Position numbers and translations under genes: made by a program. Shown piece by piece: positions 8,734 to 48,796 of a stretch of 52,704 bases of DNA (position 1 is its first letter; each line of letters starts with the position of its first letter). The notes under the pieces were generated by a model. It made no database searches, was not told the DNA's origin, and was given only the letters and a program-made list of their open reading frames with translations. Source of the DNA: Bacteroidales bacterium (lineage in GTDB: Bacteria; Bacteroidota; Bacteroidia; Bacteroidales; ML635J-15); NCBI GenBank assembly GCA_028702675.1, contig JAQVOJ010000002.1, positions 34,293 through 86,996 on the forward strand. The letters run 5' to 3'.

Positions 8734-11700
8734 TTAATAAATAACAGTTACCACTCCATTATAAGTATCAGTTCCATTGCCTAAATTAATAATATACAAA
8801 TATGATCCTGTAGGCACCGGAGAATAATTATGAGTGCCATCCCAAAAACCTTCTGAGGCAAGACTTTCGTAGATTAATTGCCCCCATCGGTTATAAACTT
8901 GAATAAATGCTTTTGGAAAAAGACCTATATTTCCAATCTCCCAAGTGTCGTTGAAGCCATCATCATTAGGAGAAAAAGCACTTGGTATTTGCAAACAATC
9001 AACATGATTATCCTCTAATTCTATCTCTTCAAATACAAGTTCGCAGCCATGGTCGTCAACAATTATTAATTCATACAATCCTTCGTACAGGCTATCTATA
9101 GGTTGAGTATTATATTGATTGCCATTTACTAAAAATGTGTATGGTTCGGTACCCCCACTAACATCAAGCATGATGTTACCATCGTAATTCCCTATGCATG
9201 AAGGATTGATAGGAATATATTCTGCTTTTAAAGGTCGTGGTTGACCAATGAATATATTAGAGTCTGTTACACAGCTGTTTGCGTCAGTAATGGTAAGAAA
9301 ATAAACATCTTGCCCAAGGTTTCTGACAATTTGAGTATTTATAAAATGATCATCAACAAACCAGTGATATTGGTAGGGTGGGGTGCCTCCTGCTCCTGAG
9401 GCATTTATAACACCATCTTGGTCTCCATAGCAACTTATTGGTGAAATATTCAAATCAATATCTAATGGAGCTTGAGGTTGAGAAATAAAACATGAATCTA
9501 TAGCCTCACAGTTATTATTGTCGGTGATTGTAACAAAATAGTCTCCTGCCGGCAATCCGCTAATCTGAGAGCTTGAAGCTCCATTTTCCCATAATATAGT
9601 ATATCCTGGCGAACCTCCACTTATATTTATTATAGCACTACCTGAAGAATTTCCATAACATTTTACGTTTGATGTATTAATCTGTGTAATAATTTCTGGT
9701 GGTTGGTTAACATTAACAACATTGCTGCCACTACAACCCCATGAATCTGTAATAGTTAGAGAATAATTTCCTGCGGCAAGATTCTGATTTTCTGATTCGT
9801 AAACTCCATTACTCCAAATATAATTAAATTCAGCAAAACCTTGAGGCATTGTGCCAATAAGAGTTGCAGTATTGTCTCCAAAACATTCAATAAAATCTGT
9901 TTGTGAAATAAGAACCTCATTGGTTCCTTCGGGATCAATTCTAAAAGTTTGTTCGTAGAAGCAATTATTTGCATCCGTTATCGAAAGAGTATATGATCCG
10001 GCAACAAGATTTGAATTAATAGCTTCGTTACTTTCTCCTTCGCTCCACTCATAGTTGTAATCTTGAGTTCCGCCGGTAACTATTACTGCAATTGAACCTA
10101 AGGAGTTTCCGCAGTCAACATTTGTAATATTTGCAGTAATTTCAATAGGATCGGGGCTTGTAATATTTACTTGATGCTCACTTTCGCATCCTGCATCATC
10201 GGTAATAGTAAGCTCATAAATACCTGCTTGAAGGTTTTCAAGATTTGTGTTATTACCACCCGGAGGATTTTGCCACGAATAAATATATGGTTCTGTACCA
10301 CCCTCGGCATGTATGCTTACAGAGCCGTCGTCAAAGCCATAGCAAGAAACCGGTTCAATATTATCAATAATCAAATGTACTGCTTCGGGTTCGCTTACTG
10401 TAATACTTTCTACGGCAATACAATTATTATCATCTGTTACAGTGAGCGTATAATCACCTGCCGATAGGTTATTTGGAGAAGGATTATTTCCGATATTTTC
10501 GTCGTCCCAAATATATAAATAAGGAGGAGTTCCACCTGTAACATCAGTAGTAACTGCTCCATCTGAATATGCATTACAAGTAACATTATTAAGTAAATCA
10601 ATATTTAATTGAAGTGCATCCGGCTCTATTAGGGTTGCACTATCGTTTACGGTACAGCCTCGAGCATCGGTAACTTGAATATAATACATGTCAGTATAAA
10701 GAGCTGTAATATCTTGATTTACAGACGTAGTACCTCCTGACCAATAATAAATATAATTTGGAGTTCCTTCGCTTATGCTTATATATATGCTTCCATTGTT
10801 TAATCCGTTGCACGAAGGATTATTTATGCTGTCAAAATTTATTTCGGGTATTGAATGAACTGTAACATCAAAATATGCAGTATCAGTGCAAGAATTATTA
10901 TCGGTATAATGATAAATTACAGTGTGTGTTCCTACTCCGGCATTTTCGGGAATAAAACTATTTCCATTAATACCCTGTCCTTCGAAAATTCCACCTGCAG
11001 GAGTCCCTGTTAATAGGCTACTATTTTCATTTAAACAATAATCTGTATCAAGTCCTGAAAAACTACTTCTCGGTAAGTCATTAACAGTAATTGTAGTGTA
11101 GATTTCAGAAATACAAGAATTTACATTTGTATATGAGTAAAAAATATCATGAGTACCAATACCGGCATCTTGGGGGATAAACATGTTTCCTGATAATCCA
11201 TTCCCTGTAAGTATACCTCCCGAAATATTTACATTAATTTCTTGAGCAGATTCATTTAAACACATAGAATTATCAAGTGCAATAAACTCAACAAAACTAG
11301 TATCGTTTACAACAATATCAATATTATCGGTAGCAGAACAAGTACCATTAATAATATTATATGTAATGTTATGATTTCCTACGCCTGCCTGCATGGGGTC
11401 AAATTCACCGGTTGAGGCATCAGTGATACCGCTACCTGACCAAGTTCCGCCACTTATTGCAGCACTTAGCATAATTGGATTTGAGTTTATACATACTGCT
11501 CCTGGAACTGAAATACTTGGGTCGGGATATTCATCTACAACTACATCATAAGTATCAGTGTCGGAACACGAACCATTTTGCACTGAATATTGAACAGTAT
11601 AAGTGCCGGCACCAACCTGAACAGGACTGAATAAGCCTTGATTAACATTGGTAATTCCTGTGCCGCTCCAGATTCCACCGGGGCTTGCTGCCGATAAGTT

Positions 11701-14700
11701 TACACTTGATTGTGTTTCACAATACGGTCCGGTTTCGGTAATACTTGCGTCAACTGCTTCGTCAACTACAATTATCTGGTTGTCGCTTGCATTACAACTG
11801 CCATTATTAATGGTGTATGTAATATTATGTGAACCTGCTCCTGCAATTTCAGGATCGAAAGCTCCGGTAAGTTCATCTACAATGCCATTACCACTCCAAA
11901 TTCCACCGGCATTAGCTGCGTTTAGGTTTACTATACCATTACTAATACAATAAGGTCCTGTTGAAATAATTGTAGCATCAGGGAAATTGTCAACTTGAAT
12001 AATTTCTGTATCAGTATCAGAACAATAGTCATTTATTACAGTATATGTAATTGTATGATTTCCAACTTGAGCAACTGCCGGAGAAAATATTCCATTCTCG
12101 GTATCAATAATACCCGTTCCCGCCCATGTTCCACCTGGGCTTACTGCATTTAAACTAATACTTGATTGGGTTTCGCAGAATGGTCCTGCCGAAGTAATTG
12201 TGGCATCAACACTTTCAGAGATCACAATGTTAGTAATATCTTCTGCGACACATTCTCCGTTTGTAATTGTATAAGTAATTTCATGACTCCCTGCCTGAGC
12301 TATTGAAGGGTTGAATGCACCTGTTGCAGGGTCTGTAATTCCGGTTCCACCCCAAACCCCACCGGCAGTAGCAGAATTAAGATTTATCGGGCTATCATTT
12401 TCGCAGAATGTATATGTTCCAATAATTGATGCATCAGGAACATCATCAACATGTATTACAATATTATCACTATCGGAACATGCACCATTTGTAATACTGT
12501 AACTAATTGTATGACTTCCTTGTCCTTCAATACCGGGGTTAAATAAACCTGAATTAGCATTAGTAATCCCGTTACCGCTCCACACTCCACCATTATCGAT
12601 TGCAGAAAGAGTTATTGGGCTGTCGGTTTCGCAAAATGGTCCGGCAGATGTAATTGAAGCATCTACTGAACTATCAACAATAATGATTGTAGTAGTTTCT
12701 GCAAGGCATGTTCCGTTTCCAACAGAATATGTTATTGTATGATTTCCTTCTCCGGCCACAGAAGGATTAAATATTCCTGCTGAAGCATCTGTAATACCTG
12801 TTCCACTCCAAGTTCCACCGGGCACATTTACATTTAGGTTTACAGGACTTTGTGTTTCACAGAATGGTCCGGCCGGTGTAATTTGCGGATCAGGATTTGA
12901 GTAAACTGTTATTGTAATATTGTCATTATCAGCACATTCGCCATTGCTTACGGAATAAGATATTATATGATTACCGCCTGTAGCAATACCCGGATGAAAT
13001 ATTCCTAATGAGCTATTAATTATTCCCGTTCCACTCCAGGTTCCACCGCTACTTACTGCATTTAGTGTTAGAGATGGGTCTGTTTCGCAGAAAGGTCCGG
13101 CAGGTGTAATTGTTGCATCTACAAGCTCATCTACATGAATTGTAATATTTGATGAATTTGAGCAAGCTCCTTGATTTAAGCTATAGGTAATTAAATGATT
13201 TCCGGCACCTGCAAGCGTTGGGTCAAAAATTCCTGCTGAAGGGTCAATAATTCCATTCCCACTCCATAAACCTCCGGGGGTTGCAGCACTAAGATTTGTA
13301 GCAGGATCTGATTGGCAAAACGGGCTTACAGGATTAATTGTAGTGTTTGGAATAGCATCTACTATAAAGTTTTCTGTATCTATATCGTTACATTCGCCAT
13401 TAATTACCTCGTAAGTAATAGAATGGTCGCCCACGCCGGCAACTGCGGGAGTAAAAGCTCCGGTATTTGTATTAGTAATACCTGTTCCCGACCATGTTCC
13501 ATTTGGAGAGGCTGCAGTTAAAATCACAGAAGCTTCGTCAATACAGAAAGGCCCGTCAGGATTAATTTGTGCACTAACATTCCCGTCAACATGTATTTCT
13601 ATTTCATCATTATTTGTACATACTCCACTAGCAATACTATACGTTATAAGATGATTTCCTTCACCTGCTGTGGTTGGGTCAAATATACCGTTAATAGCAT
13701 CAGTAATGCCATTTCCGCTCCATGTTCCCCCAGCACTTGCAGCATTTAGATTAATTGCAGGATTATTTTCACAGAATGGTCCGGCAGGAGCAATTGTTGC
13801 AGGCAAAGTATCATCTATTTGAATACTCGTACTAGCAGCATCGAAGCAGGCTATATTACCTACTTCGTAATTAATCGTGTGATTACCCGACCCCGCTACT
13901 GATGGGTCGAAGATACCTTCATTAGGATCTGTAATACCTACACCACTCCATATTCCTCCGGGTGTGGCAGCCGTAAGTACAATTTCATTTTCGGTAATAC
14001 AAGTAGTTGGTACGGGAGTAATACTTGCATCAACTACAGTATTGTAAACAAATACAGAAATTTGGTCAATTGAAGTACAGCTACCATTATCAATTGAGTA
14101 TGTGATTATATGTTCGCCACCGCCGGCAGTAGTAGGGTCGAATAATCCTGTATTTGTGTCGATTATGCCATTTCCACTCCATGTTCCACCTGAAGTAGCA
14201 GCCGTAAGATTAAAAGCCGGATCGGTAATACAAAGGGGGCCGGGACTTGTTATGCTTGCATCAAAAGCTTCATCAACCTGAATGTCTTGTGTATCTGAAT
14301 CGTTGCAAGTACCATTAACAACATTATAAGTAATAGTGTGAGTTCCTATTCCGGCAATAGAAGGAGTAAATTCTCCTGTTGCAGAGTTTGTAATTCCAGT
14401 ACCACTCCAAACACCACCTGAAGAAACGGCAGATAAAATTACCGGCGGGTCAAATTGACAATATGGTCCTAAAGTAAGAATATTGGCATCTACTGCTGCA
14501 TCTACTGTAATAGAAATATTTGTATTATTAGAGCAAGCACCGTTTGAAACAGTATATATAATATTAAAAACTCCATCTCCTGAAACTAAGGGGTCAAAAA
14601 TGCCTGCATCAGTATCTGTAATTCCTGTACCCGACCAAGTACCACCTGCCGGGCTACCATTTAGGTTAATAGTTCCTGATGATTCACAAATATTTCCAAC

Positions 14701-17700
14701 AGGAGTGATTACGGGATTTGTTTCATCGTCAACAACGATGTTCTCAGTATCTATATCGCTGCAAGCCCCGTTAATGATTTGGTAAGTAATAGTATGAATT
14801 CCGGGTCCTGCAAAAGCAGGCTCAAACAAACCTGTAGCAGAATTAATAATTCCATTACCACTCCATGTTCCACCATTATCTGCAGCTATTAAATTACTTG
14901 CAGGTGAGTTAATACAGAATGGTCCTGCCGGGGATATTGTTGCATCTACATCATCGTCAACATGAATTACAATTTGGTCATTATCGTTGCAAGAGCCATT
15001 TACAATATTGTAAGAAATGATATGATCACCTGCTCCTGCCATGTTAGGTTCAAATAATCCGTTAACAGGGTCGGTAATGCCTGTGCCACTCCATACACCT
15101 CCTGCTGAGGCAGCATTCAAATTTACAGGCATGTCTGTAATACAAAATGGAGAAACCGGAGTAATTGAGGCATCAGGTTGAGCTTCCACTATTATTATTT
15201 GAGTATCGCTATCGCTGCAAGTGCCATTGCTTACGCTGTAAGAAATTGAGTGATTACCTGCTCCGGCAATAAATGGGTCGAAAAGTCCTGTGTTTGGGTT
15301 AACGATTCCCGAACCACTCCAAACGCCTCCGGCAGTATTTGCTGATAAAATAACGGAGGCACCGGTTTCACAATATGGACCGGAATTTACGATACTAGCA
15401 TCCACATCTTCATCAACAACAATGAGTGTGCTATCTGTACTTTGGCATACGCCGTTAGTAAGTGTATAATAAACATAATGATTTCCTTGTCCTGCCAGAG
15501 AAGGGTCGAATTGGTTTCCTGTTACACCTGTTCCACTCCACACTCCACCGGTGTTATTAGCATTAAGATTTACTAAACCATCAGCTTCGCATACATCCGG
15601 CACTGGAATTATTGATGCATCAGGGATACAATCTACATGAAAAGTTTCTGTGTCAGTATTTGAACATGTGCCATTATTTAGCTGATAAGATATTATAAAA
15701 TCGCCACAACCGCTAATTTGGGGATTAAAGGTACCTGTACTGGCATTTGTTATACCTGTACCACTCCAAGTTCCACCTGAATGGCTAGCTGTAAGAGTAA
15801 CTGGATTATTGTTTTCGCACCAAGGACCGGCAGGGTTTATTATCGGGACAATATTTTCGTCAACTTGGATTGTTGTATTTGCAGAGGCTGTGCATGCTCC
15901 ATTAGTTACAGTATAAGTAATAGTAAAACTACCAAAAGAAGAAGCGGAGGGGTCGAAAACACCATTATTTGGGTCGGTAATACCGGTTCCACTCCACAGT
16001 CCTCCGGCAGGGCTAGCATTAAGATTAATCGGAGTTTCGTTTTCGCACAAAGGTCCTGCACCAGTTACAGAAACAGAAGGATATGAATCTACATGTATTA
16101 TTGTAGTTTCTGTATCGCTACAAGCACCATTTTGAATACTATATTGAATCGTATGATCTCCCACACCTGCCATACTGGGGCTGAACAATCCTGTAGATTG
16201 ATTAACAATGCCACTTCCTGACCATTCTCCACCCGGATCGGCAGCTGTTAAAGTAGTTTCAGCATCAATAATACAAAACGGACCGGCAGGTGTAATACTT
16301 GCATCCACTTCATCGTAAACTACTACTTGAACACTATCAGTGCTTGCACAAGTTCCATTTACAAGAGTATAATAAATTGTATGAGTACCAACTCCTGCTG
16401 TAACAGGGTCGAAAGTTCCATTAGTATTATCAATAATTCCATTTCCGCTCCAAATCCCACCCGGATTTACAGAAATCAAATCTTGAGGAGAGTTTGAGAT
16501 ACAAAAAGTTGGCGGTGCACTAATACTGGCATCAGGAATATAATCTACATTTATAATAATGTTATCAGAATCATTACACGGACCATTACTTACCTCATAA
16601 GTTATAGCGTGGTTTCCGGGACCGGAAACAGTAGGATCGAAAATGCCGTTATTTATATCAGTAATACCTGTTCCTGACCAAATTCCACCATTAGAAACTG
16701 CGTTTAGAGTAATTGGTAAATCATTTTCGCAAAGAGGTGCTTCGGGAGTAATTGTAGCATCTACCTCTTCAAATACTTCAATAAAAATACTATTTTCTGA
16801 CAAACATGCTCCCGATATAACCTGATATGTAATTTCATGACTTCCGGGACCGGCAAGTCCGGGGTTAAACAATCCTGATGAAGCATTTGTAATTCCATTT
16901 CCTGCCCAAACTCCTCCGGTTGTGGTAGCAGAGAGAGTAATTTCGGGATCAGATTCACAAAAGGGTAAAACAGGATCAATGCTTGGATCAGAAACAGCGT
17001 CCACATGTATCAGAACACTATCAATATCGTAACATGAACCATTTCCAATTTCATAATAAACATAATAATCGCCATTACCTGACACATTAGGGGTAAATTC
17101 TCCGGATGAAGAATTAGTTATTCCTGTTCCACTCCATGTACCACCTAAAGTAGCAGCATTAAGAATTATTGGATCATCTGTTTCGCATAAATCATCAACA
17201 GGGGTAATACTGGCGTCAACATCTGCAAATACGTGAATGATTACCGAGTCTGTTAATACACAGACGCCATTTTCGGTGGTATGATAAACTACATTTTCAC
17301 CAATATTTGCCATTGCAGGAGAAAATTCGCCGGTATTAGCGTCTGTAATACCAGGTCCGCTCCAAATTCCGATTCCTGCAGCAGTTAATATAACCGGTGC
17401 ATCTGTATCACAAAAGGAACCTGGATTATCAATATCGGGAGGTATGGCTTCATCAAGGTTAATTTGGATAGAATCAATATCGTTACAAGCCCCATTTTCG
17501 ACAAAATATTGTATCCAATGTGAGCCGTATCCTGCAATTTCGGGATTAAAAATCCCATTATTTATATTAGTAATACCATTTCCACTCCATATACCGCCAG
17601 GGCTAACAGTTTCTAATACTAATTCATCATCATTTTCACACAAATCCGGTAACGGAGTAATACTTGCGTCAGGGATTGTATCTACAATTAGTTCTATGCT

Positions 17701-20127
17701 TATACTATCTGAGCATGCATTATCGGTAACAGTAATAGAATAAAGTCCGGCATTAATTGTTTCTGCATTTGGTATTTCAATAAGACTATCAGTATCAGTA
17801 AATGAATTAGGTCCTTCCCATATATATAAGCTTCCACCCGAAGCTTCTAAAAATACAGTATCTCCTTCGCAAACAGGGCTTGTAATACTAATATTAGGAA
17901 TAGGAATAGGGAATACATTAAAGTTTACATCGTCTGTGCCTCTACATAAATTTTCGTCTAATACTAAAACCTGGTATAGTCCGCTGTTATCAACTGTTAC
18001 GCCGTTTATTTGAGGGTTGTTGTCAGTGCTGGTAAATCCATTGGGGCCTATCCATTGGTAAGAATCATAATTGCCGGTATTTAATATTAATGTGTCGCCT
18101 TCGCATAAATCGAATGGACCTAAGATTTCGGGTGTTGGATTTGGGTTAACTTCAACTACAGTATTTGTTACTGCTTTGCAGCCATTATTATCGGTAACTG
18201 TTACCAGATAATTTCCAGAATAATCTAATCCGGCTTCGTTAATAACAGGATTTTGTTCGGTACTTACAAATCCATTTGGTCCTTTCCATCTGTACGAAAA
18301 TGCATTACTAACCGATAATTCGATGTCGTCTCCTTCGCAATAAGGGCCTGTATTTGAGGCTATAGGTTCCGGTAGGGGTGCAATATTAACAGTAGTGCTT
18401 AATGATTTGCTATTACAGGGATACTCAATAGTAAGATCATAGGTTGTTTGGGTTTCGGGAGAAACATAAATTTCAGAACCGACCATTCCATTACTCCATG
18501 TAATTACAGCAGTATCGGGTAGTGGATTCATATCCACAGTAAGTAAAATAGAATCACCAAAACAAACATAATCATCGTGAACAATAGAAGCATCGAATTC
18601 AATTTCGTCATCAATTCTAATTGAGTCGGTAGAAATTTGCACACTACATGGACAACCGTTATATATTGAAATTACTATATATTCATTATCATCAGGAAAG
18701 TTATCGGCAATAGCTTCGTAGTCAATAGAAATGTATTCCTCACCTGCTGGAATTACATAAAAAGTATTTATGGTTGTATAATCATCTCCCATAGTAGCAC
18801 TACCTGTAATAGTAATATCCACATCCATAGGTTCGTTGATATTAGAAGTGTCTGAACGACTGAATATTAATTGGTTTTCGCAAGCTTCGTGAATACTGTT
18901 TAGGTATCCCCATGCATTAAAGTTTTTCATTACTACACTTGCTCCCGAAACAAAGCTACCGGCTTTTAGGAATACTCCGCTATCCAATATTCTATCTGAT
19001 ACATCGGCAATTGCAAGTTTCATGTGGTAAGTTTCGCAAGGAGTAACGTCTGCTTCGGCAGTAAGAGTAACTGTTAATCCGTCGAACTGAAGATATAGCC
19101 CCCCATTGTTATTAATATAATAATCAGAGTTAATATTTTGATTTACATTATTAATGCTAACAGGAGTAGTAGTCCCCGGTATTAATGCAATGTTTTGGTT
19201 GTTATATCCCTCGGGACCTCCACTTATAAAAAACGCAAATACATCGTTAAAGGCAGACCCTACATACTCTTCGTATTCTTCTGAAGCAAAAACATATTGA
19301 AACTCTACATGATCGGTACTTGGGATAAAGTCAAACTCCAGTACAGCAGCATCTCGTGTTTGTCCACCAATTACATCATTAAGATCAGAATCGCCGGGAG
19401 CTTGCATATTACCACTTTCGGATGTATTATCGTTTGGTCCTACAACTTGCTGTGCAAAACCAGTACTCATTACAATTCCTTCCTCAAAATCTAGTCCGGG
19501 TGTCCCTGACGAGAAATACCCAATGCTTTCGGGGTTCCCAGAATATTGAATATTAATCGCCTCTACACATCCCGATGTAAGTATCTGAGAAACAAGCTGT
19601 ACGGGAGTAAAAGATGTTGTGTTAATTATGGGTGGGGTATCGTCTGCCCGAGATGAAAAATCTGCAGATTCGGTTTTTATTCGAAAAACACCACCCGCAT
19701 TTGTTTCATTTATCCACAAACGCACTAAAACAGTTTCGTCTTTATTGAATGTTGAATCGGGAACAAATAGTTTTATTTCTTTACTTTTGGTTTGTGTATA
19801 TACTTTTTCGGTTAATCCTTCGTCTGTAATACTATATAGTGATATTCCGGCATTAGTGTTTTGTTGAAAATTTATGTTCAAAAAATACGATTCAGAAGGA
19901 TTATGTGTAAAACTCATGAAAAAGTCTTTGCCCATGTAGTCGCGGGCTATTTCAGAAGGGGGTAAACTTGATGTAGTTTGATGATTAAAAAACAATAGCT
20001 TGTTTGTGCTTATATCTTCTATATAAGTTGGTGCATTAATGTCCTGACTCACATAATCCTGCGACAATGAAATATTTGTAAAAAAAAGTACAAATAGAGC
20101 AAAAATTAGTATTTTATTGAACTGCAT
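8734..20127 (-). CDS. Giant T9SS type B adhesin with 30 tandem units and 8 SprB-type repeats
   Basis: The 3797-residue product has these parts in order: signal peptide (1-22); choice-of-anchor L domain (~170-395, with GIVMSTG and FASEEYEEYVG); a Calx-beta-like region (~400-520); four Ig-like domains (~520-810); 28 canonical ~76-residue units with the core GG-WSGTGI and two degenerate units (~820-3094); eight SprB-type repeats (~3095-3710, e.g. SCYGFDDGSV, GGTEPY, ITDDAGC); and a gliding-motility-associated type B sorting domain (~3715-3797, AFSPNDDGFNDTW, YNRWGQLIYE). SprB of Flavobacterium johnsoniae is the mobile gliding adhesin, so a role in surface adhesion or gliding is plausible. Export by T9SS and surface attachment are expected. 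The gene lies 69 bp after the FnIII protein gene and probably shares its transcript. Confidence 0.93.
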   Translation of the reverse strand: MQFNKILIFALFVLFFTNISLSQDYVSQDINAPTYIEDISTNKLLFFNHQTTSSLPPSEIARDYMGKDFFMSFTHNPSESYFLNINFQQNTNAGISLYSITDEGLTEKVYTQTKSKEIKLFVPDSTFNKDETVLVRLWINETNAGGVFRIKTESADFSSRADDTPPIINTTSFTPVQLVSQILTSGCVEAINIQYSGNPESIGYFSSGTPGLDFEEGIVMSTGFAQQVVGPNDNTSESGNMQAPGDSDLNDVIGGQTRDAAVLEFDFIPSTDHVEFQYVFASEEYEEYVGSAFNDVFAFFISGGPEGYNNQNIALIPGTTTPVSINNVNQNINSDYYINNNGGLYLQFDGLTVTLTAEADVTPCETYHMKLAIADVSDRILDSGVFLKAGSFVSGASVVMKNFNAWGYLNSIHEACENQLIFSRSDTSNINEPMDVDITITGSATMGDDYTTINTFYVIPAGEEYISIDYEAIADNFPDDNEYIVISIYNGCPCSVQISTDSIRIDDEIEFDASIVHDDYVCFGDSILLTVDMNPLPDTAVITWSNGMVGSEIYVSPETQTTYDLTIEYPCNSKSLSTTVNIAPLPEPIASNTGPYCEGDDIELSVSNAFSYRWKGPNGFVSTEQNPVINEAGLDYSGNYLVTVTDNNGCKAVTNTVVEVNPNPTPEILGPFDLCEGDTLILNTGNYDSYQWIGPNGFTSTDNNPQINGVTVDNSGLYQVLVLDENLCRGTDDVNFNVFPIPIPNISITSPVCEGDTVFLEASGGSLYIWEGPNSFTDTDSLIEIPNAETINAGLYSITVTDNACSDSISIELIVDTIPDASITPLPDLCENDDELVLETVSPGGIWSGNGITNINNGIFNPEIAGYGSHWIQYFVENGACNDIDSIQINLDEAIPPDIDNPGSFCDTDAPVILTAAGIGIWSGPGITDANTGEFSPAMANIGENVVYHTTENGVCVLTDSVIIHVFADVDASITPVDDLCETDDPIILNAATLGGTWSGTGITNSSSGEFTPNVSGNGDYYVYYEIGNGSCYDIDSVLIHVDAVSDPSIDPVLPFCESDPEITLSATTTGGVWAGNGITNASSGLFNPGLAGPGSHEITYQVISGACLSENSIFIEVFEEVDATITPEAPLCENDLPITLNAVSNGGIWSGTGITDINNGIFDPTVSGPGNHAITYEVSNGPCNDSDNIIINVDYIPDASISAPPTFCISNSPQDLISVNPGGIWSGNGIIDNTNGTFDPVTAGVGTHTIYYTLVNGTCASTDSVQVVVYDEVDASITPAGPFCIIDAETTLTAADPGGEWSGSGIVNQSTGLFSPSMAGVGDHTIQYSIQNGACSDTETTIIHVDSYPSVSVTGAGPLCENETPINLNASPAGGLWSGTGITDPNNGVFDPSASSFGSFTITYTVTNGACTASANTTIQVDENIVPIINPAGPWCENNNPVTLTASHSGGTWSGTGITNASTGTFNPQISGCGDFIISYQLNNGTCSNTDTETFHVDCIPDASIIPVPDVCEADGLVNLNANNTGGVWSGTGVTGNQFDPSLAGQGNHYVYYTLTNGVCQSTDSTLIVVDEDVDASIVNSGPYCETGASVILSANTAGGVWSGSGIVNPNTGLFDPFIAGAGNHSISYSVSNGTCSDSDTQIIIVEAQPDASITPVSPFCITDMPVNLNAASAGGVWSGTGITDPVNGLFEPNMAGAGDHIISYNIVNGSCNDNDQIVIHVDDDVDATISPAGPFCINSPASNLIAADNGGTWSGNGIINSATGLFEPAFAGPGIHTITYQIINGACSDIDTENIVVDDETNPVITPVGNICESSGTINLNGSPAGGTWSGTGITDTDAGIFDPLVSGDGVFNIIYTVSNGACSNNTNISITVDAAVDANILTLGPYCQFDPPVILSAVSSGGVWSGTGITNSATGEFTPSIAGIGTHTITYNVVNGTCNDSDTQDIQVDEAFDASITSPGPLCITDPAFNLTAATSGGTWSGNGIIDTNTGLFDPTTAGGGEHIITYSIDNGSCTSIDQISVFVYNTVVDASITPVPTTCITENEIVLTAATPGGIWSGVGITDPNEGIFDPSVAGSGNHTINYEVGNIACFDAASTSIQIDDTLPATIAPAGPFCENNPAINLNAASAGGTWSGNGITDAINGIFDPTTAGEGNHLITYSIASGVCTNNDEIEIHVDGNVSAQINPDGPFCIDEASVILTAASPNGTWSGTGITNTNTGAFTPAVAGVGDHSITYEVINGECNDIDTENFIVDAIPNTTINPVSPFCQSDPATNLSAATPGGLWSGNGIIDPSAGIFDPTLAGAGNHLITYSLNQGACSNSSNITIHVDELVDATITPAGPFCETDPSLTLNAVSSGGTWSGTGIINSSLGIFHPGIATGGNHIISYSVSNGECADNDNITITVYSNPDPQITPAGPFCETQSPVNLNVNVPGGTWSGTGITDASAGIFNPSVAGEGNHTITYSVGNGTCLAETTTIIIVDSSVDASITSAGPFCETDSPITLSAIDNGGVWSGNGITNANSGLFNPGIEGQGSHTISYSITNGACSDSDNIVIHVDDVPDASIIGTYTFCENDSPINLNSATAGGVWGGTGITDPATGAFNPSIAQAGSHEITYTITNGECVAEDITNIVISESVDATITSAGPFCETQSSISLNAVSPGGTWAGTGIIDTENGIFSPAVAQVGNHTITYTVINDYCSDTDTEIIQVDNFPDATIISTGPYCISNGIVNLNAANAGGIWSGNGIVDELTGAFDPEIAGAGSHNITYTINNGSCNASDNQIIVVDEAVDASITETGPYCETQSSVNLSAASPGGIWSGTGITNVNQGLFSPVQVGAGTYTVQYSVQNGSCSDTDTYDVVVDEYPDPSISVPGAVCINSNPIMLSAAISGGTWSGSGITDASTGEFDPMQAGVGNHNITYNIINGTCSATDNIDIVVNDTSFVEFIALDNSMCLNESAQEINVNISGGILTGNGLSGNMFIPQDAGIGTHDIFYSYTNVNSCISEIYTTITVNDLPRSSFSGLDTDYCLNENSSLLTGTPAGGIFEGQGINGNSFIPENAGVGTHTVIYHYTDNNSCTDTAYFDVTVHSIPEINFDSINNPSCNGLNNGSIYISISEGTPNYIYYWSGGTTSVNQDITALYTDMYYIQVTDARGCTVNDSATLIEPDALQLNIDLLNNVTCNAYSDGAVTTDVTGGTPPYLYIWDDENIGNNPSPNNLSAGDYTLTVTDDNNCIAVESITVSEPEAVHLIIDNIEPVSCYGFDDGSVSIHAEGGTEPYIYSWQNPPGGNNTNLENLQAGIYELTITDDAGCESEHQVNITSPDPIEITANITNVDCGNSLGSIAVIVTGGTQDYNYEWSEGESNEAINSNLVAGSYTLSITDANNCFYEQTFRIDPEGTNEVLISQTDFIECFGDNTATLIGTMPQGFAEFNYIWSNGVYESENQNLAAGNYSLTITDSWGCSGSNVVNVNQPPEIITQINTSNVKCYGNSSGSAIINISGGSPGYTILWENGASSSQISGLPAGDYFVTITDNNNCEAIDSCFISQPQAPLDIDLNISPISCYGDQDGVINASGAGGTPPYQYHWFVDDHFINTQIVRNLGQDVYFLTITDANSCVTDSNIFIGQPRPLKAEYIPINPSCIGNYDGNIMLDVSGGTEPYTFLVNGNQYNTQPIDSLYEGLYELIIVDDHGCELVFEEIELEDNHVDCLQIPSAFSPNDDGFNDTWEIGNIGLFPKAFIQVYNRWGQLIYESLASEGFWDGTHNYSPVPTGSYLYIINLGNGTDTYNGVVTVIY
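10846..17670 (-). repeat. Tandem array of 30 coding units of about 228 bp in the adhesin
   Basis: The array encodes 28 canonical units and, at its C-terminal end, two degenerate ones in which WSG is replaced by LTG or FEG. A canonical unit runs: D-A-S-I-T-P-A-G-P-F-C, a Leu-Asn-Ala strand, GG-WSGTGI, a D/N-rich turn, F-P, AG-G-H-ITY, NG-C-D, and an IHVD strand. Nearly every unit has one Cys near position 11 and one near 62. Unit 9 has two extra Cys, and unit 10 lacks four residues after TGV. The DNA copies differ at many sites, so the array is not a recent expansion. Confidence 0.9.
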
Positions 20128-44263: not shown

Positions 44264-44608
44264 CTATTCTACTTTATATTTGCCTTTCTTTTTCCCGAAA
44301 ATATTGCAACTGGCTTTCACTTTAATTTTAGTTCCTGATTCTAGATTAGGCATATTTAAAACCACTTTATGCCCTTCAAGACTAGTCTGTTCTTCATACG
44401 CAATTACTTCAACTTCATCACCGTTAATGTAAACCCATATTTTTTCAATAAAGTGCTTTGACGCATCTTTTACAGGATGACTAAATTCAATTGTTAAATC
44501 GCCAGTTTTTTTATTGTAAGAAATTTCAGGTTTTCCTGGTGGGTGTGCAAATAAGGCAGTACCCATGAAAATCATACTTATTAGAATTACAAAAAATTTT
44601 GTTTTCAT
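44264..44608 (-). CDS. Secreted superoxide-reductase-fold (desulfoferrodoxin-like) protein
   Basis: This 114-residue protein has a signal peptide (1-21, ending LFA), so the mature chain starts HPPGKPE. The body resembles the iron-binding domain of superoxide reductase: SHPVKDASKHFIEKIWVYING matches the HP-x-HxI-W segment, and the closing KASCNIFGK matches CNxHG. In active enzymes four His and one Cys bind iron. Here the Cys and two His are kept, but the His of CNxHG is Phe. It may bind another metal, use the N-terminal His as a ligand, or have lost metal binding. The fold call is by pattern only. The gene stands between prmC and the anti-sigma gene and has its own terminator. Confidence 0.6.
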   Translation of the reverse strand: MKTKFFVILISMIFMGTALFAHPPGKPEISYNKKTGDLTIEFSHPVKDASKHFIEKIWVYINGDEVEVIAYEEQTSLEGHKVVLNMPNLESGTKIKVKASCNIFGKKKGKYKVE

Positions 44609-44669: not shown

Positions 44670-45884
44670 TTATTGTTCAGAAGGATGTTCAATATTTTCG
44701 GTTAGTATAGAACGAGAATGCATGTTAGTTGTTTTACTGCTTTTTGCTGGTTTTAATACAATAAGTTTTTCAGTTCTTACTTTAATTACACGTATATCAT
44801 CAATATAATAATAGGCAAAATTAAAGTCAGTAGTATTAATCATCCTGTAAAAGGTTTCGTTATTGTGTCTGAAATTTCCGATTGTGATATATTCTTCGCC
44901 GCCAACAGCAGTAAACACTCCTTCAATTTTTACCCAGTAGTCTTGATTGTCAAGTATATTGCCTCTTTGATTTTCGATTTGCGGATAAAAATCAATTACC
45001 CCTTTTTCTTTTAAATAAACTTCTTCGTTGCTAAGTAGAGCTCCCATTCCATCTGTTGCAAATCTTGACTTATTAGCCATTTGAACATAGAAACATATTT
45101 TATAATCTTCGCCCTTTTCGAGAGGATTGTTTAATTTAGCCTGTATGTATTCGCGATATTCTAAAGGTTTTTCTCCTGTAATTCGATTGTCTTTCGTAAA
45201 ATTCTGTCTCGAAATTAGTCCTACATATCCTTTTCCTGTTTTTGGGTAAGCTGTCCCTGCAAAATTATTAGGAACACTTACATTTCCTCTCGAACATTTG
45301 TTGAAATAATCAGGAGTACCTTTACTTGCCATTTTCCATTCGGGAATAAATCTTTTCGAAGCTTTTTTGTTAAAGTCTTTGGGGCAAGTTCTATATTCCT
45401 CGAAAGAATGATTTGGAACTAGGTTTGCACCAATCTCATGATAAACTATTTGTGTGTCGGCAATTAACTCAGGTAATTCAATTTGTGGTAAGTATTCGGT
45501 TTCAATTATTTGGTCAATCTTTTCCGAATTTGGAACAGTTATGGGCTTAAAGATTGTTTTGTTGCTATTATCGATATATTCTGCTGAATTTAGTTCTGCA
45601 AACAAATTTTCCGTTTCTTCTGCGTTTGTAATGATTTCTTTTTCATTTTCAGAAATTAATTGAGATGGTACTAGTTCAAGATTGGATTTTTGTTCGTGGG
45701 GAATAAATAAAACAAGACCTGTAGCTATTGGCAATAAAAGAATTAACCAATAATATTTTTTTCTTTTGTTGGGTAAGTTACGTTCAATGCTGTGCCATAT
45801 ATTTGGGGATTCAATTTCAGGCAAATCTTTAATAGCATTCTGTAAGTTTTCTTTATTATGCTCCTTGTATTCCATAGTTTTCAT
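44670..45884 (-). CDS. Anti-sigma factor-like membrane protein with an adhesin-type outer domain
   Basis: The first ~40 residues are cytoplasmic and helical (NIWHSIERNLP), as in anti-sigma factors. A single membrane segment follows (~44-62), then a linker of ~90 residues. The outer domain (~150-375) has LVPNHSFEEYRTCPKDF, TPDYFNKC, VPNNFAGTAYPKTGKGYVGL and ICFYVQMA. This pattern is found in large surface or OmpA-type proteins of this phylum and is probably a jelly-roll binding domain. The gene overlaps the sigma-factor gene by 29 bp, so it should restrain that sigma factor in response to a periplasmic or surface signal. A start at the ATG at 45875 is also possible. Confidence 0.75.
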   Translation of the reverse strand: MKTMEYKEHNKENLQNAIKDLPEIESPNIWHSIERNLPNKRKKYYWLILLLPIATGLVLFIPHEQKSNLELVPSQLISENEKEIITNAEETENLFAELNSAEYIDNSNKTIFKPITVPNSEKIDQIIETEYLPQIELPELIADTQIVYHEIGANLVPNHSFEEYRTCPKDFNKKASKRFIPEWKMASKGTPDYFNKCSRGNVSVPNNFAGTAYPKTGKGYVGLISRQNFTKDNRITGEKPLEYREYIQAKLNNPLEKGEDYKICFYVQMANKSRFATDGMGALLSNEEVYLKEKGVIDFYPQIENQRGNILDNQDYWVKIEGVFTAVGGEEYITIGNFRHNNETFYRMINTTDFNFAYYYIDDIRVIKVRTEKLIVLKPAKSSKTTNMHSRSILTENIEHPSEQ

Positions 45885-46386
45885 GTTTTTTAATAAAGTT
45901 CCTTAATTTGCGTTTTGCGTAAAAAAGCTGTGATTTACTTGTGCCCTCAGAGATATTGAGCATTTGGCTAATTTCGCTATGGCTATATCCTTCTACTTCG
46001 TAAAGCAAGAATACGGTTCTGTATCCATCGCTAAGGTTAATAATTGCCTCGTGCAATAAATCGCCGGTAAGATTATCGTCCCAGGTAATGCTGTCGGTAA
46101 TTTTGGAGGATTCGATGAAGTAGATTTTTTTGCGTTTTAATACCTTGATTGCGTTTCTAATCATAATAGTTCGTATCCAACTCCCTATTCCTGATTCGCC
46201 TCTGAATTTTTTTAATTCAGTAAATACTGTAATAAATCCTTCTTGCAAAGCTTCTCTTGCATCGTCCTGATTAGAAGTAAACCTTAAACAAATACTGTAC
46301 ATTGCGTCTTTATATTTGTTGTACAAAGTTTCCTGTGCTTTACGATTCTGCTTCAGGCATTGTTTTATTAGCTTTTTTTCGTGCAA
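45856..46386 (-). CDS. ECF RNA polymerase sigma factor
   Basis: The 176-residue protein has sigma region 2 (QETLYNKYKDAMYSICLRF, then QDDAREALQEGFITVF) and region 4 (DGYRTVFLLYEVEGYSHSEISQML, SEGTSKSQLFYAKRKL). Regions 1 and 3 are missing, as in the ECF group. The start is a TTG at 46386. No ATG or GTG precedes region 2 in this frame, and a later start would remove part of it. The next gene overlaps by 29 bp and encodes the likely anti-sigma factor. Regulon members cannot be named from the window. Confidence 0.92.
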   Translation of the reverse strand: MHEKKLIKQCLKQNRKAQETLYNKYKDAMYSICLRFTSNQDDAREALQEGFITVFTELKKFRGESGIGSWIRTIMIRNAIKVLKRKKIYFIESSKITDSITWDDNLTGDLLHEAIINLSDGYRTVFLLYEVEGYSHSEISQMLNISEGTSKSQLFYAKRKLRNFIKKHENYGIQGA

Positions 46387-46588
46387 AACAGTGTTTCTTT
46401 ATCAGTAAAGTGCAATTTACTTAAACTATGGTTGTATCTGAATATAAAAATATGCAAAAAAAGCCCCAAACTATTTTTTGTATCTATATTTTTTCGATTG
46501 CTTTTAAAAATTTAGTAAATTTACATGTCTTGAGTCATTATAGATAGTATTTATATATTTTTATTAGATATTAATAGAACCACTAATT

Positions 46589-48796
46589 ATGAAAAAATGT
46601 ATATTCTTCTTATTCTTATGTTATACCCTAATTGCTTATAATCAAGAGTGTAGCCCTTATGCAGGTGATGATGTTACTATTTGCGGAAGTTCCACGGTTC
46701 ATTTACATGCCGAAAATGTTGGCAATGGTTATTGGTCAGCTTATAATGATGATGTGCAAATTTATCCGGTATGGTTATTTAGTACAAGTTATTCTGATCC
46801 TAATGCTGTATGCTTTATTCCCCAATATGTGGGTAATTATTGTATTATTGATTTTGTGTGGACTGATGATTGTAATTCTTATAACCCTCCCATATCTGTT
46901 ACTGATACAGTTGTAGTAACTTTTGTACGTCAACCACTGGCAGTAATTAGTACTGAAACAAACGAGTCGGTTTGTGGTAATGAATTAGAGGTGTATGCAG
47001 ATACAACAACATCTGGCTGGGCAGAAGGACACTGGGAGTCAAACTATTCAGAAATAAATTTTGATGATATTTACTCTATTAATCCAACTATACTTGTAGA
47101 TAATCCCGAATTATTTGGTGATTCAGCAAGTATAAATGTTAGGTTTTATTGGATAATGGATTATATGACTTGCGTTGACATTGATAGCATTGATGTTCAT
47201 TTTTATCAGTTTCCAGATGCTATTGTGCAAAATGATACTAGTATATGTGGAAATGAGTTTGTATTGAACTCTATATTTAGTATTCCTGAAACATCAAATT
47301 ATTGTCCAAGCGGGCAATGGGTATTATACGATGGACCTATAGGGTGTAATGTAAATATTGTGGAGCTTAGCGATACAACTACCAAAGTAGTTGTTGATAA
47401 AACCGGTGAATATAGTTTTTTATGGACAGAATATAATTCTAATATGCCATATTGTGTTTCTAAAGATACTGTAAAGATTATTTTTTTAATAAACGAAATT
47501 AATGCAGGTAGTGATATTACTATCTCAGATTGTGATTCGGCACAATTATTCGTAGAAACACAAGATTCTGAATATACTTTCGAATGGAGGTGTAATAATG
47601 ATGAAGAGTTTTATTCAGATATTCAAAATCCAATTGTTTGTCCTGAGATTTCGAGTGTGTATTTTGTTACTGTAACTGATCTTTCAACAGGTTGCAAAAC
47701 TTCTGATTATGTTTTAGTGTTTGTGCAAGACCTTATGGTTAATATAGGGAATGATACTTCATTAACTTGTGGAGAAACAATCCAGTTTAATAATGTTTTT
47801 AATAACTTTACCGGAGATGCAGAGGTAACTTATAGCTGGTTACCTAGTATAGGTTTGAACAATCCTGATATTATAAATCCAATTTGTACAATTACGGATA
47901 CTATAACTTATATTCTTAAAATGGAGACAGATAACGGCTGTATAGCCTATGATTCTATTACTATCAACTTATCCCCTAAAGCTAAACCAGATATTTGCTT
48001 TGTAACTGTTAACGAGAATAATAAATGTGAGATTAATTGGGCCGCTTCTCAATCAATTGAAACTCAGGTGTTTTATGTTTATAATAAAGATGAGTCTATA
48101 TTTGAGTTTGAAAAAATTGATACTTTGCTTTTTCAAAATTCAATTGTATTTATTGATGAAAGTTCAAAACCATTTCTTTCTCAAGAAAAATATAAAATTT
48201 CTTATAAGGATATGTGTGGTCTTGAGTCTTATTTGAGTGAGGAAAAAAAATCAATATTTTTAGGTATAAATCAGATTTCAGATAATTCTGTAAGTTTAGA
48301 GTGGAGTTCAATCCCCGAATATGTAATATGTAAAATATATATCTATCGAGGTAATACTCCGGATGAGCTTATTATTATTGATTCTTTACCATGTAACGCA
48401 GTAGAATATACCGATAATAGTATTATTGTATTAGACGAATACCTTTATTATAAATTAGGACTTAAAGTTGAAACAAATTGTATGAATTCAAAAAGCCTTA
48501 AAAATATTTTTTCAAATATAGCTACTAACGATCCTAATTTTTATGAAGGAAGTTCTTCGGAAATATTAGGTTTAAATAAATTTAAAATATTTCCAAATCC
48601 CGGCAGTAAAATTTTGTATTTTAAAGCTGATTTTAAGATTGATAAAATTTCAGTTTTTGACTCACATAGCAAGAAGTTACACTCCATTGCTTTATCCGAT
48701 AATTATATTGATATTTCGGGTTTAACTCCTGGTACATATTATATTATTGCCGAAGGAGAAAATAATAGAATTACAAAGAAGCTCTCGATTCAATAG
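46589..48796 (+). CDS. T9SS-exported Ig/FnIII-like repeat protein
   Basis: The 735-residue product has a signal peptide (1-19). Ig/PKD-like domains follow, opening with phrases such as AGDDVTICGSS, IVQNDTSICGNE, AGSDITISDCDS and NIGNDTSLTCGE. A region of two FnIII-like domains lies at about 470-650 (EINWAASQSIE, VSLEWSSIPEY). A T9SS type A sorting domain closes the protein (FKIFPNPGSKIL, ISGLTPGTYYIIAEG). No enzyme domain is visible, so a structural or adhesive surface role is likely. The gene is divergent from the sigma-factor operon across a 202-bp gap. Confidence 0.85.
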   Translation: MKKCIFFLFLCYTLIAYNQECSPYAGDDVTICGSSTVHLHAENVGNGYWSAYNDDVQIYPVWLFSTSYSDPNAVCFIPQYVGNYCIIDFVWTDDCNSYNPPISVTDTVVVTFVRQPLAVISTETNESVCGNELEVYADTTTSGWAEGHWESNYSEINFDDIYSINPTILVDNPELFGDSASINVRFYWIMDYMTCVDIDSIDVHFYQFPDAIVQNDTSICGNEFVLNSIFSIPETSNYCPSGQWVLYDGPIGCNVNIVELSDTTTKVVVDKTGEYSFLWTEYNSNMPYCVSKDTVKIIFLINEINAGSDITISDCDSAQLFVETQDSEYTFEWRCNNDEEFYSDIQNPIVCPEISSVYFVTVTDLSTGCKTSDYVLVFVQDLMVNIGNDTSLTCGETIQFNNVFNNFTGDAEVTYSWLPSIGLNNPDIINPICTITDTITYILKMETDNGCIAYDSITINLSPKAKPDICFVTVNENNKCEINWAASQSIETQVFYVYNKDESIFEFEKIDTLLFQNSIVFIDESSKPFLSQEKYKISYKDMCGLESYLSEEKKSIFLGINQISDNSVSLEWSSIPEYVICKIYIYRGNTPDELIIIDSLPCNAVEYTDNSIIVLDEYLYYKLGLKVETNCMNSKSLKNIFSNIATNDPNFYEGSSSEILGLNKFKIFPNPGSKILYFKADFKIDKISVFDSHSKKLHSIALSDNYIDISGLTPGTYYIIAEGENNRITKKLSIQ

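What the first reader, a model, noticed from the sequence alone, without database searches (positions are those of the whole stretch)
44670..45884. Anti-sigma factor fused to a surface-protein-type binding domain
The gene overlaps an ECF sigma-factor gene and encodes a short cytoplasmic helix region, one membrane segment and a large outer domain. The outer domain has the NSFEEYRTCP / PDYFNKC / YVGL pattern typical of large exported proteins of Bacteroidota, not of FecR-type or zinc-finger anti-sigma factors. Such a protein could sense glycan, peptidoglycan or stalled surface cargo directly and release the sigma factor. I know of no described pathway for this architecture.
Basis: partly seen in the sequence, partly recalled or inferred. 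Interest (0 to 1): 0.6.

Follow-up and report, generated by a model that had tools for sequence, protein, structure and literature searches.

The report
Tethered anti-sigma factor with CBM-like sensor
This gene pair most likely lets a Bacteroidales bacterium hold back a transcription switch (an ECF sigma factor) with a membrane protein that ends, outside the inner membrane, in a sugar-binding-type domain normally found on exported envelope proteins; it looks like a new sensor variant of a recently described class of tethered anti-sigma factors.

Summary
On the minus strand, 45884→44670 encodes a 404-aa protein that overlaps an ECF sigma gene (46386→45856) by 29 bp. It has a ~40-aa cytoplasmic part, one N-in/C-out membrane helix, a ~90-aa hypervariable tether and a ~220-aa outer domain. 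The full architecture occurs in 9 of 31 genomes of its GTDB family, always directly after an orthologous ECF sigma gene. Sigma and anti-sigma orthologues occur in exactly the same 9 genomes, behind an invariant promoter, ATACAAC-N18-CACTTTA. It was not found elsewhere (393 genomes of the order; GTDB contig scan). The outer domain recurs across Bacteroidota in exported proteins carrying OmpA or T9SS C-terminal domains. It models confidently (pLDDT 92) as a CBM4/22/16-like jelly roll, below the Pfam cut-off. It is the most conserved part (66% identity; tether 15%) and has a loop specific to the anti-sigma version. Related ECF sigmas in the family also precede membrane-tethered proteins, but with other outer modules: a T9SS type-B/CHU_C domain or a putative barrel (Dma-like). 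Best reading: an autoregulated, ligand-sensing tethered anti-sigma factor, a new outer-module variant of a Dma-like class. Sigma binding, the ligand and the regulon are not shown.

The parts
44670..45884 (-). putative tethered anti-sigma factor, 404 aa (start M1 at 45884 or M4 at 45875)
   Evidence: orthologues in 8 other species
45759..45857 (-). cytoplasmic part (~residues 10-42): two short helices around the motif LxxAIxxLPxxxAPxVWxxIE, the putative sigma-binding segment
   Evidence: 52% mean identity among 9 orthologues; alignment A7; helices in fused model; weak profile similarity to the N-terminal repeats of barrel-type proteins
45699..45755 (-). single membrane helix, residues 44-62, N-in/C-out by positive-inside rule
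   Evidence: hydropathy scan of 7 orthologues
45441..45698 (-). hypervariable tether (~residues 63-148), predicted disordered
   Evidence: 15% mean pairwise identity, 85-99 aa; pLDDT 25-42 over most of it
44775..45431 (-). outer domain, residues 152-370: CBM4/22/16-like jelly roll, also found in exported OmpA-domain and T9SS-cargo proteins
45165..45200 (-). loop 229-240 (FTKDNRITGEKP), nearly invariant in the anti-sigma version and different or absent in exported relatives
45856..46386 (-). ECF sigma factor, 176 aa (TTG start)
   Evidence: orthologue only in the 9 genomes that have the anti-sigma gene; tree
46406..46437 (-). conserved promoter-like element ATACAAC-N18-CACTTTA, 19 nt upstream of the sigma start codon
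   Evidence: identical boxes and spacing at the sigma gene in 9 of 9 genomes, flanks diverged; the only exact site in its own genome

Best explanation
The gene encodes a membrane-tethered anti-sigma factor for the ECF sigma factor encoded just upstream. The short cytoplasmic segment holds the sigma at the inner membrane. One helix crosses that membrane, and a flexible ~90-residue tether carries a CBM-like jelly-roll domain into the periplasm. A ligand there changes the tether or exposes it to proteolysis, the sigma is freed, and it switches on its own operon from the ATACAAC-N18-CACTTTA promoter. The ligand is most likely a conserved envelope component of the kind bound by the OmpA-type proteins that carry the same domain. 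Shown here by sequence or structure computation: architecture, strict linkage and co-occurrence, outer fold, conserved promoter. Inferred: sigma binding, topology, periplasmic location of the domain, autoregulation, ligand class, and release by proteolysis.
For: Nine of nine full-length homologues lie directly downstream of an ECF sigma gene; reading frames overlap in eight and are 1 nt apart in one. Sigma orthologues (184-197 bits, at least 52% identity) occur in exactly the genomes with the anti-sigma gene; the next-best sigma scores 121 bits. One TM helix with positive inside. Outer-domain model pLDDT 91.9; Foldseek matches CBM4, CBM22, CBM16 and gingipain cleaved-adhesin domains with E 4e-6 to 1e-4, TM up to 0.63 by target length. 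Conservation is 66% in the outer domain, 52% in the cytoplasmic part, 21% in the TM and 15% in the tether, the pattern expected if both ends bind something. Promoter boxes are invariant in 9/9. In an artificial sigma plus anti-sigma chain, the cytoplasmic segment forms two helices with pLDDT ~90 over the loop joining them, and the sigma2/sigma4 arrangement matches several anti-sigma-bound ECFs (SigW/RsiW TMt 0.60-0.67, CnrH/CnrY 0.58, rmsd ~6) better than RNAP-bound ones (TMt 0.30-0.42, rmsd 22-28). An M50 site-2-type protease gene is present.
Against: No direct evidence of sigma binding. The fused model is one chain with an unpaired alignment of 17 rows and pTM 0.42; no contact map was available, the closed sigma arrangement might arise without the anti-sigma segment, and other anti-sigma-bound ECFs (RpoE/RseA, AlgU/MucA) match less well (TMt 0.46-0.50, rmsd 14-16). 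The cytoplasmic part matches no known anti-sigma family. The Pfam CBM_4_9 match is below cut-off (17.3 against 25.9 bits), so sugar binding is a fold-level guess. No regulon beyond the operon was detected, and no neighbouring gene was seen to be shared across all loci.
Confidence: 0.66

Rival explanations
1. The protein is a membrane-tethered receptor co-transcribed with the sigma factor that acts as a positive partner or accessory sensor rather than an inhibitor; the sigma is controlled mainly by expression level or by another protein.
For: The cytoplasmic part has no recognised anti-sigma domain. PMC7406223 reports that only 6% of Bacteroidetes ECFs have a class I anti-sigma domain encoded nearby, so other controls are common there.
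Against: Related ECF sigmas in this family are likewise followed by tethered proteins; in the Dma class of this build, effects of deleting dma2 require its sigma Das2 (PMC13088901). Weak profile similarity of the cytoplasmic motif to barrel-type proteins, above 200 column-shuffled nulls.
Confidence: 0.2
2. The protein is an anti-sigma factor, but the outer domain senses an external or nutrient polysaccharide, making this a PUL-like glycan switch comparable with RsgI/sigma-I of Clostridium thermocellum.
For: CBM4/22/16-type fold. RsgI precedent of anti-sigma factors sensing substrates (PMC12203970). Glycan sensing is hypothesised for Dma2 (PMC13088901).
Against: No glycan-utilisation genes recognised next to the pair in the window ORF list or the loci read (not searched systematically). 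Strong conservation of the domain and loop across species fits a fixed intrinsic ligand better than a changing diet. Most relatives carry an OmpA C-terminal domain, which places them next to the peptidoglycan.
Confidence: 0.22
3. The protein is an anti-sigma factor whose outer domain reports on a protein partner or secretion state (for example T9SS traffic), as the sister proteins with a T9SS type-B/CHU_C domain might.
For: Related sigmas in the same genomes are followed by tethered proteins that end in CHU_C / T9SS type-B domains. A T9SS cargo gene lies divergently at 46589-48796.
Against: The window protein itself has no CHU_C or T9SS sorting domain. The neighbouring cargo gene is not seen next to the orthologues.
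Confidence: 0.15

Closest known systems
[quoted passage not shown]
   Same: N-terminal cytoplasmic segment, single TM helix, variable tether, C-terminal beta domain, gene adjacent to an ECF sigma gene, Bacteroidota only
   Different: Outer end is a soluble CBM-like jelly roll instead of an outer-membrane beta-barrel; homology of the N-terminal part only weakly supported; ECF21 membership of the sigma not tested
RsgI anti-sigma-I factors, Clostridium thermocellum (PMC12203970, PMC4711584)
   Same: Membrane anti-sigma factor that senses substrates outside the cell
   Different: Not homologous: no RsgI domain match and the partner is an ECF sigma, not sigma-I; RsgI is from a Gram-positive
CnrY/CnrH class II anti-sigma system (4cxf)
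   Same: Very short cytoplasmic segment of two helices before a TM helix; sigma arrangement in the fused model resembles CnrH bound to CnrY
   Different: No sequence similarity detected; outer part unrelated
RsiV/sigma-V, an anti-sigma factor acting as lysozyme receptor (PMC5014341)
   Same: Idea of direct ligand binding by the outer part of an anti-sigma factor
   Different: Different outer part and phylum
OmpA-C proteins with the same N-terminal domain (e.g. L009 1369-2814, L012 1305-2936; own genome L002/L148)
   Same: Same outer domain, about 40% identity
   Different: Signal peptide plus peptidoglycan-binding OmpA domain, no cytoplasmic part, not linked to a sigma gene

Membership tests
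[quoted passage not shown]
   AF2 model of the outer domain is a CBM-like jelly roll, pLDDT 91.9
[quoted passage not shown]
   one TM helix; tether 85-99 aa, 15% identity, pLDDT 25-42
[quoted passage not shown]
   hhalign against N-terminal repeats of barrel-type (putatively Dma-like) proteins: score 16.7, probability 30%, above all 200 column-shuffled nulls (max 14.7); authentic Dma sequences were not at hand
[quoted passage not shown]
   adjacent ECF sigma: yes. ECF group not testable here; the sigma groups with sigmas of barrel- and CHU_C-type proteins (32 rows, 95/97), but those rows were chosen for similarity
FecR-type anti-sigma factors | FecR domain | tested here: not met
   no match in Pfam or NCBIfam up to E=1
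Class I anti-sigma domains (zinc or RseA type) | recognisable zf-HC2 / RseA / ASD-I domain of ~4 helices | tested here: not met
   no Pfam match; cytoplasmic part only ~40 residues with two short helices
Class II (CnrY-like) anti-sigma | short two-helix cytoplasmic peptide clamping sigma2 and sigma4 | tested here: inconclusive
   two short helices in the fused model; Foldseek to CnrH in the CnrY complex TMt 0.58; contacts not available
RsgI / sigma-I | RsgI N-terminal domain and sigma-I partner | tested here: not met
   no such Pfam match; partner is an ECF sigma
CBM_4_9 (PF02018) | Pfam gathering score 25.9 bits | tested here: not met
   17.3 bits for the window domain; 10 of 63 relatives match at all, best E 0.0011; fold-level match only

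The most novel reading that the evidence does not exclude
Bacteroidota carry a modular class of ECF-linked, membrane-tethered anti-sigma factors in which the outer module is exchangeable: putative beta-barrel, PKD plus T9SS type-B/CHU_C sorting domain, or this CBM-like domain shared with PG-anchored OmpA-type proteins. Each sigma subclade would be matched to one module, so the cell would monitor different envelope layers (outer membrane, T9SS traffic, periplasm/cell wall) with one signalling design.
Probability: 0.4. Interest if true: 0.75.

Novelty: new variant of a known kind. Interest (0 to 1): 0.57.

Why it matters
It would show that the Dma plan is not tied to a beta-barrel: the outer end of tethered anti-sigma factors can be swapped, here for a domain shared with peptidoglycan-anchored exported proteins. 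That gives a handle on what these sensors read, which is unknown for Dma too: the outer domain is predicted to be soluble, so it could be purified and screened directly. The sister proteins that end in a T9SS type-B sorting domain raise the testable idea that the cell monitors its own secretion system through an anti-sigma factor that imitates cargo.

Tried and rejected
A single-protein contig scan found nothing; the profile scan then did. The exact promoter pattern also hit other places in five genomes (L114, L117, L119, L120, L122, L125). Four of these (L117, L119, L120, L125) sit at the terminator hairpin of an unrelated ECF gene (GCCACTTTA...AGTGGC), so they were rejected as regulon members. 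One-mismatch sites are no more frequent than the reversed-pattern control. Three alignments for the fused model misplaced the anti-sigma N-terminus on the sigma and were discarded; A6 was used, in which helix 1 is covered by the query only. The PDB sequence search gave nothing meaningful. An ortholog of the neighbouring T9SS cargo gene was not seen at the other loci. Helix 1 of the cytoplasmic part weakly resembles sigma region 4.1 (5.5 bits, decoy maximum 2.8); too weak to interpret. The Dma1 paper (PMC10927553) was not held.

Full report
What is there. On the minus strand, ORF 45884→44670 (404 aa) follows an ECF sigma gene, 46386→45856, and overlaps it by 29 bp. The sigma passes Pfam and NCBIfam cut-offs for sigma-70 regions 2 and 4. 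The second protein has one hydrophobic segment, residues 44-62, preceded by five K/R and followed by one, so N-in/C-out. It has no FecR, zinc-finger, RseA or RsgI match; the only Pfam hint is CBM_4_9 below cut-off.

It is a conserved unit. Full-length homologues (about 40-45% identical) occur in eight further species; loci found by GTDB contig scan and by whole-genome search are the same or overlapping Bacteroidales/Bacteroidota MAGs. In all nine the ECF sigma gene is immediately upstream; frames overlap in eight and are separated by 1 nt in L006. A search of all 31 family genomes with the sigma gives nine orthologues (52-56% identity for the eight others), in exactly the nine genomes with the anti-sigma gene; the next sigma in any genome drops from 184 to 121 bits. 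In 393 genomes of the order no full-length match exists outside the family, while the outer domain alone is found in 65.

Promoter. Upstream of the sigma gene, all nine loci keep ATACAAC-N18-CACTTTA while the flanks diverge. The AAC in the upstream box is typical of ECF promoters (own knowledge). Other ECF genes of this genome with tethered partners appear to show xxCAAC with other -10-like boxes (read by eye). The exact element occurs once in the window's genome, at its own sigma gene. One-mismatch sites do not exceed the reversed control. This suggests autoregulation and gives no sign of a wide regulon, though targets with divergent promoters would be missed.

Outer domain. Residues 152-370 belong to a domain not covered by Pfam above cut-off. 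It recurs in Bacteroidota as the N-terminal domain of signal-peptide proteins ending in an OmpA peptidoglycan-binding domain (PF00691, e.g. L012, L022), or in what look like T9SS-type C-terminal domains (L066, L071, L075, judged by eye). With 63 sequences AlphaFold2 gives pLDDT 91.9 and pTM 0.89, an almost all-beta fold. Among the best Foldseek matches are CBM4, CBM22, CBM16 and gingipain cleaved-adhesin domains, behind an arabinanase. Among the nine anti-sigma proteins the outer domain is 66% identical, the cytoplasmic part 52%, the TM 21% and the tether 15%. A loop FT(R/K)DN(K/R)ITGEKP, residues 229-240, is nearly invariant in the anti-sigma version but different or absent in exported relatives; T230, N233, R274, L311, E321 and M348 are anti-sigma-specific. 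Strong conservation favours a fixed intrinsic ligand over a variable nutrient glycan; that is inference.

Sigma contact. An artificial single chain, sigma plus anti-sigma residues 10-404, was read from the window DNA with one declared four-letter word (GCAT=A) purely as a modelling device. The anti-sigma segment forms helices 178-186 and 197-203, with pLDDT ~90 over the linking loop. The sigma2/sigma4 arrangement matches SigW-RsiW (TMt 0.60-0.67), RpoE-NepR (0.58) and CnrH-CnrY (0.58) better than RNAP-bound ECFs (0.30-0.42); RpoE-RseA and AlgU-MucA lie between (0.46-0.50). With 17 rows, pTM 0.42 and no contact output, this is only suggestive.

A wider class. In the same genome, other ECF genes precede proteins of the same plan: C163 (L146), tandem W..I motifs, TM, tether and a C-terminal region ending in F, putatively a Dma-like barrel though with no Pfam or NCBIfam match; C121 (L147), CHU_C 58 bits; C184 (L031), PKD plus CHU_C. 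In 19 of 20 loci taken around next-best sigmas of other family genomes (the twentieth is cut by its contig end), the sigma gene is followed by a protein with an N-terminal hydrophobic helix. Of ten of these scanned, seven carry CHU_C above cut-off, and NCBIfam calls the one tested a T9SS type-B sorting domain above cut-off. A sigma tree gives one supported group of 32 sigmas (95/97) in which the CBM type (100/99), PKD-CHU_C type (100/98), CHU_C type (92/86) and two barrel-type sets separate. The rows were chosen by similarity, so the 32-row group is partly by construction; the match of module to subclade is not. The cytoplasmic motif of the window protein resembles the barrel-type repeats weakly but above 200 column-shuffled nulls.

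Comparison with the known. Dma1/Dma2 of B. thetaiotaomicron have an N-terminal anti-sigma domain, TM, disordered tether, C-terminal beta-barrel and an ECF21 sigma; the phenotype of deleting dma2 requires Das2 (PMC13088901). The window protein is built like these but fails the barrel criterion, so it is not filed as a Dma. RsgI factors (PMC12203970, PMC4711584) are a functional analogue in a Gram-positive, not relatives. I found no paper on ECF-linked anti-sigma factors with this domain or with CHU_C domains in the held library, which misses many subscription papers.

Verdict. A membrane-tethered, ligand-sensing anti-sigma factor is most likely (0.66). What it binds, whether it binds the sigma, and what it controls remain to be shown.

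Noticed in passing
L147 1882-3495, L031 183-1469, and L177, L179, L181, L182, L185, L188, L196 (related loci): Proteins directly downstream of ECF sigma genes with an N-terminal inner-membrane helix and a C-terminal CHU_C / T9SS type-B sorting domain: anti-sigma candidates that look like membrane-anchored T9SS cargo, which might report on T9SS activity.
   Followed up: partly
L146 602-2212 and relatives L149-L166: ECF-linked Dma-like protein with two tandem short W..I motifs before the TM and a putative C-terminal barrel; in L146, L151, L154 and others it is followed by a PKD gene (with Por_Secre_tail where scanned, L146). Matches in 14 of 31 family genomes.
   Followed up: partly
L009, L010, L011, L022, L024, L094, L113: The OmpA-type protein carrying the same outer domain lies next to a GlsB (glycine lipid N-acyltransferase) homologue (467.7 bits, cut-off 300, for L009; the others by motif); a hint that the domain's ligand might be connected with envelope aminolipids.
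   Followed up: partly
L148 2321-4170 (own genome contig C35): The OmpA-type paralogue has a repetitive NNSGDGSDDDLANK linker and a run of N in the assembly, with the OmpA domain in another frame, so it may be an assembly artefact or a broken gene.
   Followed up: no
window 46589-48796: 735-aa T9SS type-A cargo protein (Por_Secre_tail above cut-off), divergent from the sigma gene; not seen next to the orthologues.
   Followed up: partly
window 44264-44608: 114-aa signal-peptide protein with sub-threshold desulfoferrodoxin/NEAT-like matches, directly downstream of the anti-sigma gene.
   Followed up: no
window 8734-20127: 3797-aa ORF, possibly a giant surface protein.
   Followed up: no
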